From an uncultured SAR86 cluster bacterium (GTDB lineage Bacteria; Pseudomonadota; Gammaproteobacteria; Magnimaribacterales; AG-339-G14), in NCBI GenBank assembly GCA_902524805.1, contig CABZES010000011.1, forward strand, positions 1 through 43,953: a stretch of 43,953 bases of DNA, written 5' to 3'. Below the pieces are notes generated by a model. It was given only the letters and a program-made list of their open reading frames with translations. It searched no databases and was not told where the DNA came from. This document shows, piece after piece, positions 33,133 through 38,349 of this stretch (position 1 is the first letter of the stretch; the number at the start of each line of letters is the position of its first letter). Made by a program: the position numbers and the translations under genes.

Positions 33133-36100
33133 ATGATTAGGTTAGGGGTAATAACTCTCTCAATCATTCTTTTTGGATGTGGAGGGGGAGGAAGCAGTTC
33201 AGGCACAACAAACAACCCAGGCCCTGTGACAATCTCTGGATCTGTTCAAGACGGATATATTTCAGGTGCTTCAGTTTTTATAGACACAAATGCAAATTAT
33301 ATTCTTGACGCAGGAGAAAAATCAGCAACCACCAATGATAGAGGTGAATTTTCTTTATATTATGAAAATGGTTTGCCATCGGGGTTCTTGGTCTCTGTCG
33401 GAGGAACTGATTTAGATACAGGAATTGCTGATACCGAGTTGGTTTTCGTAAAAAAGGTTGCTGATATTTCAAATACAAACTTGATAACCCCTTTATCTTC
33501 AATTGCAACTTATCTTAGTGCTAGCAGCGATCTAAATAAAATACTTGGATTTTCAAGTTCATATGAATTTGTTCATCCAGCAACCAATAAAAACAGCAAA
33601 TACTATCAAGCCGCTAATAAATTATCCGTTTTAGCCAAAATATTAAGAAGTATTACTAATGCTCGAAAAGGATTTAACAACTATGAACTTGATACACATA
33701 TTTTTTTTGAAACTATTGCAAGCAGATTAGCTCAGAATGATTTAGGTCAAGCAATAAAAATTGATGAAACTGTCTTTTTGGAACAACTTTTAACAGATCT
33801 AGAGATAAAGCAAAGCGTTCAAATAAATAATAAAAGCGATATAAGTATTGCAGTGTCAAATGCTCTTTCCTTGATTCAGTATAAATCTGATGATCTAACT
33901 AATAGATTATTAAAATGGGCAAATGAAACACTACCTGATGAAATTGTTTCTGGTACGCAAAGTAACGCATCCTACTTCGATAAATTTAAAAATGATATTT
34001 TCAATCTTGTGATTACATCAAGCACTTTTAATGGATTATCCTATGACGCTAGCCAATTGGTTCCCAGCCTAGAAATTGGCGCAGATACATTTACTATTAA
34101 TGAGGATACTGCTTCGACAATTGATGTTTTAGCCAATGATGATTTTATGTCGTCTTATCCTTTTACTTTTAGTCCTGATTTGGCGCCAGTGAATGGCTCA
34201 TCTTCTTTAGTTGATAACAAAATCGTTTATACGCCAAACGCAAATTTTAATGGAACCGAGACATTTTCTTATTCTCTGACTCAAAACGGTCAAACAAAAG
34301 TTGGTTCAGTAAATATAATAATTACTCCTGTTAACGACGCACCTGAAATAGGAATTGCTTTGCCAATCACAGTCAATGAAAATCAAACCGCGATTAAAAC
34401 CATACTTTTTTCAGATGTTGATTCAGCTGCAGAACTTATAACAACTTCTCTAAGCGGAACCGATGCCAGTTACTTCAATTACACCTCAGCAGGAGTTTTG
34501 TCTTTCAAAGAAGCTCAAGATTATGAATCCAAAAATTCCTTTTCCATAACCATAACAGCCACCGATGGCACATCGGAAAGATCTTATAACGCAATCGTTC
34601 AACTTATTAACTTAAATGATAATAGCCCTGTGATTCCGACTAATTCCTTTGCAATAAATGAAAATACGACTACCGTTACTTCTTCTTTGGCAACTGATGC
34701 TGATGGCGGTGCTCTTAATTACTCTCTGTCTGGAACCGATGCTGCAGCTTTTTCGATTTCTTCTCTTGGGGCTTTAACTTTTAATACTGCGCCAAATTAT
34801 GAAGTAAAAAATAGTTATTCTTTTGATGTTACTGCATCTGATGGCACAAATCCTTCGGTAACTGACTCTATTATAGTAAATGTTTTAGATGTAAACGACG
34901 CTCCGGTAATGGCAAATCTAACCGCTTCTATTAATTTACTACCAACGGTATCTTCTTCTGCTACAAAGACTGTCGCAATGAATGCTTCCGATGACGAAGG
35001 AGACGCAATAACTTATTCGATAGTTGAAAATGGATCTTATGGCACTGCCGCAATAAGCGGAACTTATATTACTTATACGGTAAGCGCATCAACTAACAAT
35101 TCTTCAGTTGCAACAGATACAATAAAAATAAGACTGAGTGATGGATTAGATATCTCAGATATTCCATTTACTATAAATTTAAAAACGGATCCGTTTTATC
35201 AACACTCTTGGCATTTGAAAAATACAGGGCAAACAAATTTTGCCTCAAATACAGGGACAGCTGGAGCCGATATGAACGTCGATGCAGTTATAAATTCTGG
35301 AAAAACCGGTAGTGGTGTCACTATTGCAATTCAAGATTCAGGCTTGGAAATTGCACACGAAGACATAGCTGACAATCACCTCGCTGGTAAATCATGTGAT
35401 TTTTTAAACAACGATGACGATCCAACACCAGCATCAAGCGGCGGAGATCATGGGACTTCTGTTGCAGGAATTGCTGCAGCTTCAGGTTGGAATGATAAAG
35501 GGGGCAGAGGAATAGCTCCCAAGGCAAATTTAGTAGGTCACAATATATTAGCTTATCAAACTTTAAGTACTTATCTTGATGCTTACGGAGCAACCCCAGG
35601 TGGTTGCGATACAGATGTTGTAGATATTATGAATCAAAGCTATGGAGCCGGAGATTCTGATAGTTTTAATACTGCAGGTTTGTTCAGTCTTTTTTTAGAT
35701 GCTTATATAAATGGAGTGACGAATGGGAGAAGTAATAAAGGCTTTTTGTATGTACGATCTACAGGAAATAGCTTTTTTTCTCGTACCCTTGGACATTGTT
35801 CTCCTACAGGAGTTTCGTTGTCAAACACGCCTTATGAATATAGTTGTTACGATTCAAGTTATGACGATGATCTTACAGAGCCCTATTTAATCGGCGTCAC
35901 AGCATTAAATGCATTCGATCTAAAGTCTTCTTATTCCACTCCAGGAACAAGCGCATGGATATCTGGATATGGGGGTGAATTTGGATCGACTTATCCCGCA
36001 ATGATGACAACTGATTTGATGGGTTGTGATAAAGGCTATAACCAATCTTCTTCAGTAATTAATGGGGATTCAAATTGCGATTACATGCAAAATTTCAATG

Positions 36101-36765
36101 GAACTTCATCTGCGGCACCGTCGGTTTCAGGAGCTATTGCTTTAATTTTAGAAGCAAATACAAATCTAACTTGGCGAGATATCAAACATATTTTAGCTTC
36201 TTCAGCTACTCAAATTGATAATTTGAGATCTAAGACTTACGAATCTGTCGATTTATATAAGTGGACTACCAATGCAGCTGGGTTCAAGCATCATCCCTGG
36301 TATGGGTTTGGCAAAATTAATGTTCAATCTGCTATTACTCTTGCTGAGGCATATGTGCTTGGAAGTCTAGGAACATTTGTAAACACGTCTGGAACACAAA
36401 CAAGCATTGGTGGAACTATTACTAGCAATCAAAGAACAATATTTACGGCAAAAAAAATAACTTTATCTGCACCAGCAGGATCATCAAATTTCGTCGAGTT
36501 CATTAAGCTGAGCCTTGGGTTTGATCATGCAGATCCAGAAGAAATAAGTGTTGAACTTAAATCTCCTGATGGAACTACTGTAACTGTATTACAACCTTTC
36601 ACCTTGAAAACTTCCAATCCATCAAATAATGATTTCGATATGGGCATAAGTTCGTTTTACGGTGAAAGTATTTCAGGGGATTGGACTTTAATCATCACTG
36701 ACTACACTGACGATGGTGTAGGAGGTACACTTGATAATTGGAGTATAAAAGTTTATGGCCATTAA
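33133..36765 (+). CDS. kexin-like subtilase lipoprotein with cadherin-like repeats and P domain
   Basis: This 1210-residue surface protein has a lipoprotein signal with lipobox L-F-G-C (C16), then a Gly/Ser-rich linker. A small repeat-like domain carries D-T-N-A-N-Y-I-L-D-A-G-E, a calcium-type loop near 54-65. Three or more cadherin/Ig-like repeats (about 310-690) have V-N-D-A-P and N-E-N-T motifs. The S8 peptidase domain (about 700-1080) has catalytic D735 (I-Q-D-S-G), H773 (D-H-G-T-S-V-A-G) and S992 (N-G-T-S-S-A-A-P). The C-terminal P/homo-B domain (about 1095-1210) ends D-N-W-S-I-K-V-Y-G. No recognisable propeptide is present in the chain. It overlaps the next gene by 11 bases. It is probably an outer-membrane-anchored protease; substrates unknown. 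Confidence 0.88.
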   Translation: MIRLGVITLSIILFGCGGGGSSSGTTNNPGPVTISGSVQDGYISGASVFIDTNANYILDAGEKSATTNDRGEFSLYYENGLPSGFLVSVGGTDLDTGIADTELVFVKKVADISNTNLITPLSSIATYLSASSDLNKILGFSSSYEFVHPATNKNSKYYQAANKLSVLAKILRSITNARKGFNNYELDTHIFFETIASRLAQNDLGQAIKIDETVFLEQLLTDLEIKQSVQINNKSDISIAVSNALSLIQYKSDDLTNRLLKWANETLPDEIVSGTQSNASYFDKFKNDIFNLVITSSTFNGLSYDASQLVPSLEIGADTFTINEDTASTIDVLANDDFMSSYPFTFSPDLAPVNGSSSLVDNKIVYTPNANFNGTETFSYSLTQNGQTKVGSVNIIITPVNDAPEIGIALPITVNENQTAIKTILFSDVDSAAELITTSLSGTDASYFNYTSAGVLSFKEAQDYESKNSFSITITATDGTSERSYNAIVQLINLNDNSPVIPTNSFAINENTTTVTSSLATDADGGALNYSLSGTDAAAFSISSLGALTFNTAPNYEVKNSYSFDVTASDGTNPSVTDSIIVNVLDVNDAPVMANLTASINLLPTVSSSATKTVAMNASDDEGDAITYSIVENGSYGTAAISGTYITYTVSASTNNSSVATDTIKIRLSDGLDISDIPFTINLKTDPFYQHSWHLKNTGQTNFASNTGTAGADMNVDAVINSGKTGSGVTIAIQDSGLEIAHEDIADNHLAGKSCDFLNNDDDPTPASSGGDHGTSVAGIAAASGWNDKGGRGIAPKANLVGHNILAYQTLSTYLDAYGATPGGCDTDVVDIMNQSYGAGDSDSFNTAGLFSLFLDAYINGVTNGRSNKGFLYVRSTGNSFFSRTLGHCSPTGVSLSNTPYEYSCYDSSYDDDLTEPYLIGVTALNAFDLKSSYSTPGTSAWISGYGGEFGSTYPAMMTTDLMGCDKGYNQSSSVINGDSNCDYMQNFNGTSSAAPSVSGAIALILEANTNLTWRDIKHILASSATQIDNLRSKTYESVDLYKWTTNAAGFKHHPWYGFGKINVQSAITLAEAYVLGSLGTFVNTSGTQTSIGGTITSNQRTIFTAKKITLSAPAGSSNFVEFIKLSLGFDHADPEEISVELKSPDGTTVTVLQPFTLKTSNPSNNDFDMGISSFYGESISGDWTLIITDYTDDGVGGTLDNWSIKVYGH

Positions 36766-37297
36766 GATTTTATCTTTTCTTATTATTTTTTTTACAGCTA
36801 ATCTTTATGCAGTAAAGACAGTCGAAGTTCTCTTTATAGAACAAAATACCCAAACTGAATCTAAAGAAAATAATTTTTCTAACGAACCTATCCTGTTAAA
36901 AGATTCCTTTGTCATATTAGATAAAGATGATTTGTATAAAGATCCTAGTCTTAAAAGTCTCGGTCCTTATAAATATATTTTAGAAGTAAAAGAAACCCGA
37001 AAAGCAAATATTTCAAATTTATCGGAAGAAAAAACTATACCCCTCAAGCTTATTAAATTTCCAAATTCCGAATATAGAGTAACTGATGGAAGTATTATTG
37101 TTGCCTTTAAGGAAGATGTTGATAAACAAACTTTTGCATCTGATTACGGCTTAGAAAGCAAAAGTGATTTTGGCTTTGGGGTAGCCTACAAGGCTATTTC
37201 ATTTGAGAATGTTGAAAAAGTTTTATCAGAAATTAAAAATGACTCAAGAGTAAAATATGCTGAATATGATTATTTTCAAACAAATATACCGCATTAA
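36755..37297 (+). CDS. secreted protein resembling a free-standing subtilase propeptide
   Basis: This 180-residue protein has a signal peptide (about 1-19, hydrophobic core, cut near L-Y-A). The last 75 residues read like the propeptide of subtilases: D-G-S-I-I-V-A-F-K-E-D, F-A-S-D-Y-G-L-E, G-V-A-Y-K-A-I-S-F, then V-L-S-E-I-K-N-D-S-R-V-K-Y-A-E-Y-D-Y, matching the K-D-P-R-V-x-Y-A-E-P-x-Y ending of such domains. Its ATG overlaps the subtilase stop by 11 bases, so both are made together. A trans-acting foldase or inhibitor for that protease is inferred, as known for the Aeromonas sobria serine protease and its ORF2 chaperone. The middle (20-100) I do not recognise. Confidence 0.7.
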   Translation: MAIKILSFLIIFFTANLYAVKTVEVLFIEQNTQTESKENNFSNEPILLKDSFVILDKDDLYKDPSLKSLGPYKYILEVKETRKANISNLSEEKTIPLKLIKFPNSEYRVTDGSIIVAFKEDVDKQTFASDYGLESKSDFGFGVAYKAISFENVEKVLSEIKNDSRVKYAEYDYFQTNIPH

Positions 37298-37371: not shown

Positions 37372-38349
37372 TTATTTTTTGCATCTTGAAACTTTTAGTT
37401 CTCCATTTTTACGTTTAATACATTTTTCTTTTTTTACAGTCTCAATTTTATCTCCCTTTTTGTAGAAACTAGTTCTTCTTAATTCTCCGCCTTGTCTAGT
37501 AAACATTTTTTGTTCCTTCTTCAAATCTTCTAACTTAAGCTCTTTATAGGTTTCACCAAAATTTCTGTTTTTATAGTCTTCATAAGCTCTATTGAAATGA
37601 GCTATTCTTTCGGGACCAACAGGATGAGTAGAACCATATGGAGTTTCAAATGAATATCCATCAGATAGATATAAAAGAATATTTTTTCCTTTTTGAAAAT
37701 CATAACCAGAATTCAAAAAAATTTCTAAACCTATTCTGTCTGCTTCAAGTTCTTGAGAGGGTGAAAAATTAATTCTTCCTATGTAATTACCGACTTCTGC
37801 TCCAGTATTACCAAAGATGTCTACCCAATTTGGATCACCTGTTTCCATTCCAATCCCATATCCAATAGCTGCACCTGCTATAGTTCCTAAAAGTTGACCG
37901 CCTAGAGCATTCATTCTGTCCTCTTGGAGATGATTCAATATAGCGTGAGACATTTCATGTGCCATTATTAAAGCTATTTCGTCATCATTTTTAGAAATAG
38001 AAATCATTTTTTTTGTAAATGAAATTGTTTGCATTGAACCTTCTCCAGATAAATAAGCATTTTCCACATCATGGTCTAAAATTTGAGTTCTCCAATAATT
38101 ACAATTTTGACCTTCTGATAAACTCAAACAAATTTTCTTTGCGTACGGTAGCAAAGTTGTATAGATTTCTTCTATTCTTATCTTTGCCTCATCAAGAGAT
38201 ATTTCGTTTGATTGCCTTTCTTTTATAGAACCTAATAATTCGTTTTTTGCACTAGTTAATTCAACATTATTAATATCCTGATAAACATATTTAGGAGTTG
38301 AACAGCCCGAGATGATAAAAAATAAAATTAAAATATTAAAGCACTTCAC
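37372..38349 (-). CDS. M48 family metalloprotease, lipoprotein
   Basis: This 325-residue protein has a lipoprotein signal ending in I-S-G-C (C16) and the zinc motif H131-E-M-S-H135, with the third ligand region E200-L-E-A-D204, as in M48 peptidases. A glycine-rich hydrophobic stretch (about 151-170) lies between them. The domain organisation resembles BepA/LoiP-like periplasmic proteases that monitor outer-membrane protein assembly, but no TPR region is visible. The last 60 residues are lysine-rich. The gene is convergent with the propeptide-like gene and lies 11 bases from the CaiB-type gene upstream of it on the minus strand. The substrate is unknown. Confidence 0.86.
   Translation of the reverse strand: MKCFNILILFFIISGCSTPKYVYQDINNVELTSAKNELLGSIKERQSNEISLDEAKIRIEEIYTTLLPYAKKICLSLSEGQNCNYWRTQILDHDVENAYLSGEGSMQTISFTKKMISISKNDDEIALIMAHEMSHAILNHLQEDRMNALGGQLLGTIAGAAIGYGIGMETGDPNWVDIFGNTGAEVGNYIGRINFSPSQELEADRIGLEIFLNSGYDFQKGKNILLYLSDGYSFETPYGSTHPVGPERIAHFNRAYEDYKNRNFGETYKELKLEDLKKEQKMFTRQGGELRRTSFYKKGDKIETVKKEKCIKRKNGELKVSRCKK

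What the first reader, a model, noticed from the sequence alone, without database searches (positions are those of the whole stretch)
33133..37297. Kexin-like subtilase lipoprotein paired with a free-standing propeptide-like secreted protein
The 1210-residue subtilase has a lipobox, repeats, an S8 domain (D735, H773, S992) and a C-terminal P domain, but no recognisable propeptide before the S8 domain. The next gene overlaps its stop by 11 bases. It encodes a signal-peptide protein whose last 75 residues resemble a subtilase propeptide, including an R-V-K-Y-A-E-Y-D-Y ending. The known Aeromonas sobria protease/ORF2 chaperone pair has the same logic. A propeptide supplied in trans could act as foldase, periplasmic safety inhibitor, or both, and here the protease is membrane-anchored and repeat-bearing. 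This may be an undescribed variant.
Basis: partly seen in the sequence, partly recalled or inferred. Interest (0 to 1): 0.62.

Follow-up and report, generated by a model that had tools for sequence, protein, structure and literature searches.

The report
Protease with separate downstream folding helper
A marine SAR86 bacterium makes a lipid-anchored furin/kexin-like protease whose missing pro-segment is encoded as a separate small secreted protein right after it, the same arrangement as the Aeromonas ASP/ORF2 pair, and relatives found here show that this split design is common in Gram-negative bacteria rather than a curiosity of one pathogen.

Summary
Observation and interpretation both hold up. 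P1 (33133-36765) is a lipoprotein-like protein with Big_9/cadherin repeats, an S8 domain (D735, H773, S992) and a P domain, and no detectable cis propeptide. Its nearest solved structure is Aeromonas sobria ASP (E 6.5e-66). P2 (36755-37297) overlaps P1 by 11 bases. Its residues 107-174 are predicted with high confidence as a beta-alpha-beta-beta-alpha-beta propeptide fold. Foldseek probability is 1.00 to proprotein-convertase prodomains and to ORF2 in the ASP-ORF2 crystal. A profile of P2 relatives finds ORF2 as best PDB sequence match (2.3e-5). In 203 genomes of the same order the same 21 carry a P2-like gene and a P-domain protease, always adjacent. P2-anchored hits elsewhere lie beside an S8 protease in 5 of 5. 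Among 79 kexin-like loci found by protease sequence, 63 have a significant P2 relative: 54 downstream, 8 upstream, 1 fused N-terminally. It is a divergent, lipid-anchored, repeat-bearing member of the known ASP/ORF2 external-chaperone kind. What is new is how widespread the arrangement is, its order variants, and the sequence bridge between ORF2 and cis propeptides. Foldase and inhibitor functions are inferred, not shown.

The parts
33133..36765 (+). P1: kexin-like (S8B-type) serine protease, 1210 aa, lipoprotein signal (LFG-C16), N-terminal region about 36-310, Big_9/cadherin-like repeats about 317-690
   Evidence: Pfam; lipobox by eye; the only Peptidase_S8 match in the genome
35308..36219 (+). 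S8 catalytic domain (aa 726-1029), triad D735/H773/S992, oxyanion N879
   Evidence: best solved relative ASP 3hjr/3wqb E 6.5e-66
36496..36750 (+). P domain (aa 1122-1206)
   Evidence: PF01483 1.2e-14
36755..36765 (+). 11-base overlap of the P1 end (incl. TAA) and the P2 start (ATG); same -11 spacing in 12 of 79 related loci, suggesting translational coupling
   Evidence: coupling is inference
36755..37297 (+). P2: ORF2-like trans-encoded propeptide/external chaperone, 180 aa, Sec signal peptide about aa 1-19
   Evidence: signal peptide by eye
36812..37072 (+). P2 N-terminal region (aa 20-106): low-confidence linker aa ~21-40, then a small predicted beta/alpha unit (strands 46-55, 67-75, helix 80-89, strand 97-101)
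   Evidence: AF2 model
37073..37276 (+). P2 propeptide core (aa 107-174), beta-alpha-beta-beta-alpha-beta fold
   Evidence: AF2 pLDDT about 95 or more; Foldseek prob 1.00 to 9fic/9fid/3wqb_B; Pfam
37277..37294 (+). P2 C-terminal tail Q-T-N-I-P-H, predicted to enter the protease cleft; Pro at -2 and acidic residue at -7 recur in the family
   Evidence: P at -2 in 30/56, E or D at -7 in 39/56; ORF2 ends Q-P-K at the ASP active site (PMC5638518)

Best explanation
P1 and P2 are a SAR86 version of the ASP/ORF2 external-chaperone system. P1 is exported and lipid-anchored, with its S8-P unit unable to fold efficiently because it has no cis propeptide. P2, translated from the overlapping next ORF, is exported to the periplasm. 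Its propeptide-like core packs on the S8 domain as a folding template, and its C-terminal tail (-N-I-P-H) occupies the active cleft, so it is also a temporary inhibitor until displaced or degraded. Supplying the propeptide in trans lets the catalytic domain mature without being cut from its N-terminal anchor and repeats. Shown: sequences, homology, fold prediction, strict co-occurrence and adjacency. Inferred: foldase action, inhibition, tail insertion, coupling, the anchoring rationale.
For: P1's closest solved structures are ASP 3hjr/3wqb (6.5e-66), ahead of Kex2 (about 1e-32) and furin. No propeptide in P1. P2 matches Fervidolysin_NPro-like and ORF_2_N over the same 60 residues, and relatives such as L148 exceed the cut-offs of both families. 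P2-family profile vs PDB: ORF2 3wqb_B 2.3e-5 and 2mk4_A 2.7e-5 are the top hits. AF2 of P2 alone: pLDDT 85, core about 95 or more, beta-alpha-beta-beta-alpha-beta; Foldseek prob 1.00 to PC1/3 prodomains, ORF2, PAM protease prodomain. Same 21 of 203 genomes hold both genes, adjacent in all. P2-anchored phylum search: 5/5 beside S8. S8-anchored survey: 63/79 with a significant P2 relative. Fixed C-terminal register. Artificially joined S8-P + P2 model has pTM 0.81, more than the roughly 0.7 expected if the propeptide core were unplaced (my estimate from the residue fractions).
Against: The window P2 alone is just below the ORF_2_N cut-off, and A1 (9 close relatives) found no PDB match. Foldseek E-values are modest (0.03-0.05), and other ferredoxin-like folds appear lower in the list. 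No coordinates or PAE were available, so docking is inferred from pTM only; the tail has pLDDT about 54. The terminal residue is not conserved (H here, K in ORF2). P1 is lipid-anchored, while ASP is described as extracellular. No biochemistry.
Confidence: 0.86

Rival explanations
1. P2 is mainly a periplasmic safety inhibitor (immunity-like), descended from a propeptide but not needed for folding of P1.
For: The propeptide fold and conserved tail would inhibit; ORF2 inhibits mature ASP with IC50 84 nM (PMC5638518); stand-alone propeptide-like inhibitors exist in other organisms (e.g. PMC6993865).
Against: P1 has no other propeptide and S8 enzymes of this type generally need one. P2 is never found without an adjacent protease in the genomes searched by P2. 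In three related proteins the same domain sits N-terminally in cis, the position of a foldase propeptide.
Confidence: 0.1
2. P1 folds without help and P2 is an unrelated secreted ferredoxin-like protein that is merely co-transcribed.
For: Ferredoxin-like folds are common and several unrelated ones appear in the Foldseek list.
Against: Exact co-occurrence in 21/203 genomes, independent P2-anchored adjacency 5/5, sequence match to ORF2 and to propeptide families, fixed C-terminal register, fused forms.
Confidence: 0.02
3. A cis propeptide is hidden in the N-terminal region or repeats of P1 and P2 is redundant.
For: P1 aa about 36-310 has no assigned family.
Against: Pfam and the P2-family HMM find no propeptide in P1. 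The region before S8 is Big_9/cadherin repeats running to about aa 690. Most protease relatives with different N-termini still carry the partner gene.
Confidence: 0.02

Closest known systems
Aeromonas sobria serine protease (ASP) with its external chaperone ORF2 (PDB 3hjr, 3wqb, 2mk4)
   Same: Kexin-like S8 + P domain, no cis propeptide, chaperone gene immediately downstream, homologous chaperone core, C-terminal tail with penultimate Pro (PMC5638518)
   Different: P1 carries a lipobox and about 700 aa of extra N-terminal sequence with repeats; P2 is divergent, with a longer, partly structured N-terminal region; terminal residue His instead of Lys; genes overlap by 11 bases
Fervidolysin-type cis propeptides (Pfam PF22148)
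   Same: P2 core matches above the curated cut-off; same fold class
   Different: In P2 the domain is on a separate polypeptide and C-terminal in it
Eukaryotic proprotein convertase prodomains (PC1/3, furin)
   Same: Top Foldseek matches of the P2 model, prob 1.00; P1's S8-P unit matches furin/Kex2 structures
   Different: Those prodomains are in cis and cleaved; no repeats or lipid anchor
Stand-alone propeptide-like subtilisin inhibitors (e.g. POIA1, the malaria SUB1 propeptide-like protein of PMC6993865)
   Same: Free-standing propeptide-like fold that can inhibit an S8 protease
   Different: Regulators of proteases that have their own propeptides; no Inhibitor_I9 match in P2; P2 is gene-linked to a propeptide-less protease

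Membership tests
ASP/ORF2 external-chaperone system | Kexin-like S8 catalytic domain with intact triad | tested here: met
ASP/ORF2 external-chaperone system | C-terminal P domain | tested here: met
   PF01483 1.2e-14
ASP/ORF2 external-chaperone system | No cis propeptide in the protease | tested here: met
   No Pfam propeptide in P1; P2-family HMM negative, domain E 0.38
ASP/ORF2 external-chaperone system | Chaperone gene directly downstream on the same strand | tested here: met
   11-base overlap; adjacency in all 21 genomes of the order
ASP/ORF2 external-chaperone system | Chaperone homologous to ORF2 (PF18492) | tested here: met
   Single sequence 27.2 vs cut-off 29.2 bits, just below; family profile vs ORF2 2.3e-5; fold match 3wqb_B prob 1.00; relatives over the cut-off
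ASP/ORF2 external-chaperone system | C-terminal tail of the chaperone in the active cleft | tested here: inconclusive
   Penultimate Pro as in ORF2 (PMC5638518); joined model pTM 0.81 but tail pLDDT about 54 and no coordinates seen
ASP/ORF2 external-chaperone system | Chaperone needed for folding and inhibits the mature enzyme | not testable with these tools
   needs biochemistry
ASP/ORF2 external-chaperone system | Soluble secreted protease (a property of ASP, not clearly defining) | tested here: not met
   Lipobox LFG-C16 in P1; lipobox-like patterns also in many relatives
Conventional cis-propeptide subtilase | Propeptide N-terminal to S8 in the same chain | tested here: not met
Inhibitor I9 / POIA1-like free-standing inhibitors | Inhibitor_I9 family match | tested here: not met
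   No I9 match in P2 at E up to 1

The most novel reading that the evidence does not exclude
Propeptides supplied in trans are a general maturation mode of bacterial kexin-like proteases in several phyla. The propeptide gene has shifted between downstream, upstream and fused N-terminal positions, and the split form lets N-terminally lipid-anchored proteases mature without being cut off their anchor.
Probability: 0.4. Interest if true: 0.65.

Novelty: new member of a known kind. Interest (0 to 1): 0.48.

Why it matters
A 2022 survey still names ASP as the exception among subtilases that lacks an intramolecular propeptide (PMC9549277), and asp-orf2 operons had been listed in five genera (PMC5638518). 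The survey here finds partner genes beside kexin-like proteases in Gamma- and Betaproteobacteria and in records labelled Alphaproteobacteria, Myxococcota, Thermodesulfobacteriota, Acidobacteriota, Bdellovibrionota and SAR324. It also finds upstream and fused versions and a sequence bridge between ORF2 and ordinary propeptides. That makes the question how a chaperone domain moves between cis and trans directly testable, and it corrects annotation: such proteases expressed without their small neighbour would probably be inactive.

Tried and rejected
phmmer of P2 alone against the PDB gave only chance hits, and the 9-row profile A1 gave none; the 56-row profile A4 was needed. A direct Pfam-model search (PF18492) of 369 genomes of the class found only the window and one weak hit (E 0.0046) overlapping what looks like an anti-sigma-factor gene, not pursued. 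A viral-contig scan found no relative. Plasmid search by P2 gave one hit at E 0.3, ignored. Joining P1 and P2 with unpaired full-length P2 rows misaligned their N-termini, so they were trimmed. A hidden cis propeptide in P1 was considered and not found. Partners of L149, L163, L168, L152 and L167 are assigned by eye only (HMM E 0.3-2 or none) and are not in the 63/79 count. Other S8 proteases of the order (89 genomes without a P domain) have no P2-like gene detected; whether they carry cis propeptides was not tested with Pfam.
Full report
WHAT IS THERE. The window lies in a 1.05-Mb genome. Relatives of P1 with named records are SAR86 cluster bacteria, and P1's sister on a tree is a SAR86 protein with full support. 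P1 (33133-36765, 1210 aa) starts with a lipoprotein-like signal ending LFG-C and has an unassigned N-terminal region and Big_9/cadherin repeats. These are followed by Peptidase_S8 (aa 726-1029) and a P domain (aa 1122-1206). The triad D735/H773/S992 is as stated. P2 (36755-37297, 180 aa) begins inside the last codons of P1 and has a Sec-like signal peptide. P1 is the only S8 protein found in this (80% complete) genome.

P1 IS AN ASP-TYPE PROTEASE WITHOUT A CIS PROPEPTIDE. Against all PDB chains its catalytic part matches Aeromonas sobria ASP (3hjr, 3wqb) at 6.5e-66; Kex2 and furin follow at about 1e-32 and 1e-30. The predicted model also has ASP as best structural match. Neither Pfam nor the P2-family HMM finds a propeptide in P1.

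P2 IS AN ORF2-LIKE PROPEPTIDE DOMAIN. Its residues 110-170 match the fervidolysin propeptide family above cut-off and the ORF2 family just below it. Canonical ORF2 genes downstream of the Vibrio and Pseudoalteromonas homologues score 90.7 and 38.9 bits in ORF_2_N. Relatives of P2 such as L148 and L119 pass the cut-offs of both families over the same residues, so ORF2 and fervidolysin-type propeptides are linked by sequence. A profile of 56 P2 relatives finds ORF2 itself as its best PDB match (2.3e-5); the link from the window protein to ORF2 is partly transitive, through intermediates. AlphaFold2 gives beta-alpha-beta-beta-alpha-beta for residues 107-174 with pLDDT about 95 or more. Foldseek lists PC1/3 prodomains, ORF2 (3wqb_B) and a PAM protease prodomain at probability 1.00, though with E-values of 0.03-0.06.

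THE TAIL. Across 56 relatives the C-terminus has a fixed register: E or D at -7 in 39 and P at -2 in 30 (background Pro 3.7%), while the last residue varies. ORF2 ends Q-P-K, with its Lys at the ASP active-site serine (PMC5638518). P2 ends I-P-H.

LINKAGE. In 203 genomes of the order, the P2 profile hits 21 and the P domain hits the same 21. S8 in general occurs in 110. In all 21 the P2-like gene follows the protease directly (and, for the first nine). The Fisher p value (5e-29) ignores shared ancestry. A search by P2 alone over 398 genomes of the phylum gave five further genomes, all with an S8 protease next door: four with P2 downstream, and one (L181) with P2 upstream of a 347-aa S8 lipoprotein.

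SURVEY BY PROTEASE. A scan of GTDB species genomes with the S8-P alignment returned 79 loci. An iterated HMM finds a P2 relative in 63: 54 downstream, 8 upstream (mainly Bdellovibrionota) and one in the same polypeptide, L169 residues 105-168. One of the eight counted as upstream, L155, also has a downstream copy. Two more, L136 and L164, look fused on weaker evidence. The protease tree shows the downstream arrangement spread over most branches, upstream mostly in one Bdellovibrionota clade, and the fused forms in one gammaproteobacterial group (the labels of a few rows on that tree are by eye). Spacing of exactly -11 recurs in 12 loci. The remaining loci include contig ends and by-eye candidates.

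DOCKING. Coordinates and PAE were not available. To place both parts in one model I used an artificial reading in which one GGCC is read as one residue, which joins the P1 and P2 frames; I do not claim that any frameshift occurs. Some alignment rows were likewise joined by reading through a stop, purely to pair the two proteins. The model has pTM 0.81 with a confident S8-P part and a confident propeptide core. If the core were unplaced relative to the protease I would expect about 0.7 from the residue fractions, so this favours a confident placement, but it is indirect. A beta-bridge at the penultimate residue appears only in the joined model, at low pLDDT.

HOW IT PROBABLY WORKS. By homology with ASP/ORF2: P2 templates folding of the S8 domain, plugs the cleft with its tail, and is later displaced or degraded. 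A trans propeptide also avoids cutting the catalytic domain from its lipid anchor and repeats. In line with this, the three fused forms have the propeptide near the extreme N-terminus and no lipobox pattern, while about 45 of 69 readable N-termini show one (count partly by eye). Soluble trans pairs exist too (Vibrio, Photobacterium), so the rule is not absolute. Folding, inhibition and anchoring are all untested here.

LITERATURE. PMC5638518 describes the ORF2 tail, its IC50 of 84 nM on ASP, and homologous operons in Vibrio, Shewanella, Chromobacterium and Pseudoalteromonas. PMC9549277 calls ASP the exception among subtilases. The 2015 structure paper was not available to read. Searches of open-access papers found no description of SAR86 pairs or of a wide distribution, which does not exclude one elsewhere.

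VERDICT. The finding is real and correctly interpreted: a divergent member of a known kind, with a new domain setting. The broader pattern around it is the more interesting part.

Noticed in passing
L169:4858-7536, L136:4840-8592, L164:4897-7527: Kexin-like proteases with a P2-like domain fused at the N-terminus, separated from S8 by roughly 200 residues; natural cis counterparts of the trans system.
   Followed up: partly
L125, L131, L140, L142, L147, L154, L156 (mostly Bdellovibrionota): The P2-like gene lies upstream of the protease instead of downstream.
   Followed up: partly
L168:7589-8098: A P2-like gene (by eye, HMM E 0.3) sits between two S8-P proteases, so it may serve both.
   Followed up: no
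L181:443-1869: A P2-like gene upstream of a 347-aa S8 lipoprotein: trans propeptides may not be limited to kexin-like enzymes.
   Followed up: no
L124, L141, L143: Two P2-like genes within one locus, suggesting tandem protease/partner pairs.
   Followed up: no
window 37372-38349 (-): Convergent gene for an M48-family metallopeptidase with a lipoprotein-like signal next to the protease pair.
   Followed up: no
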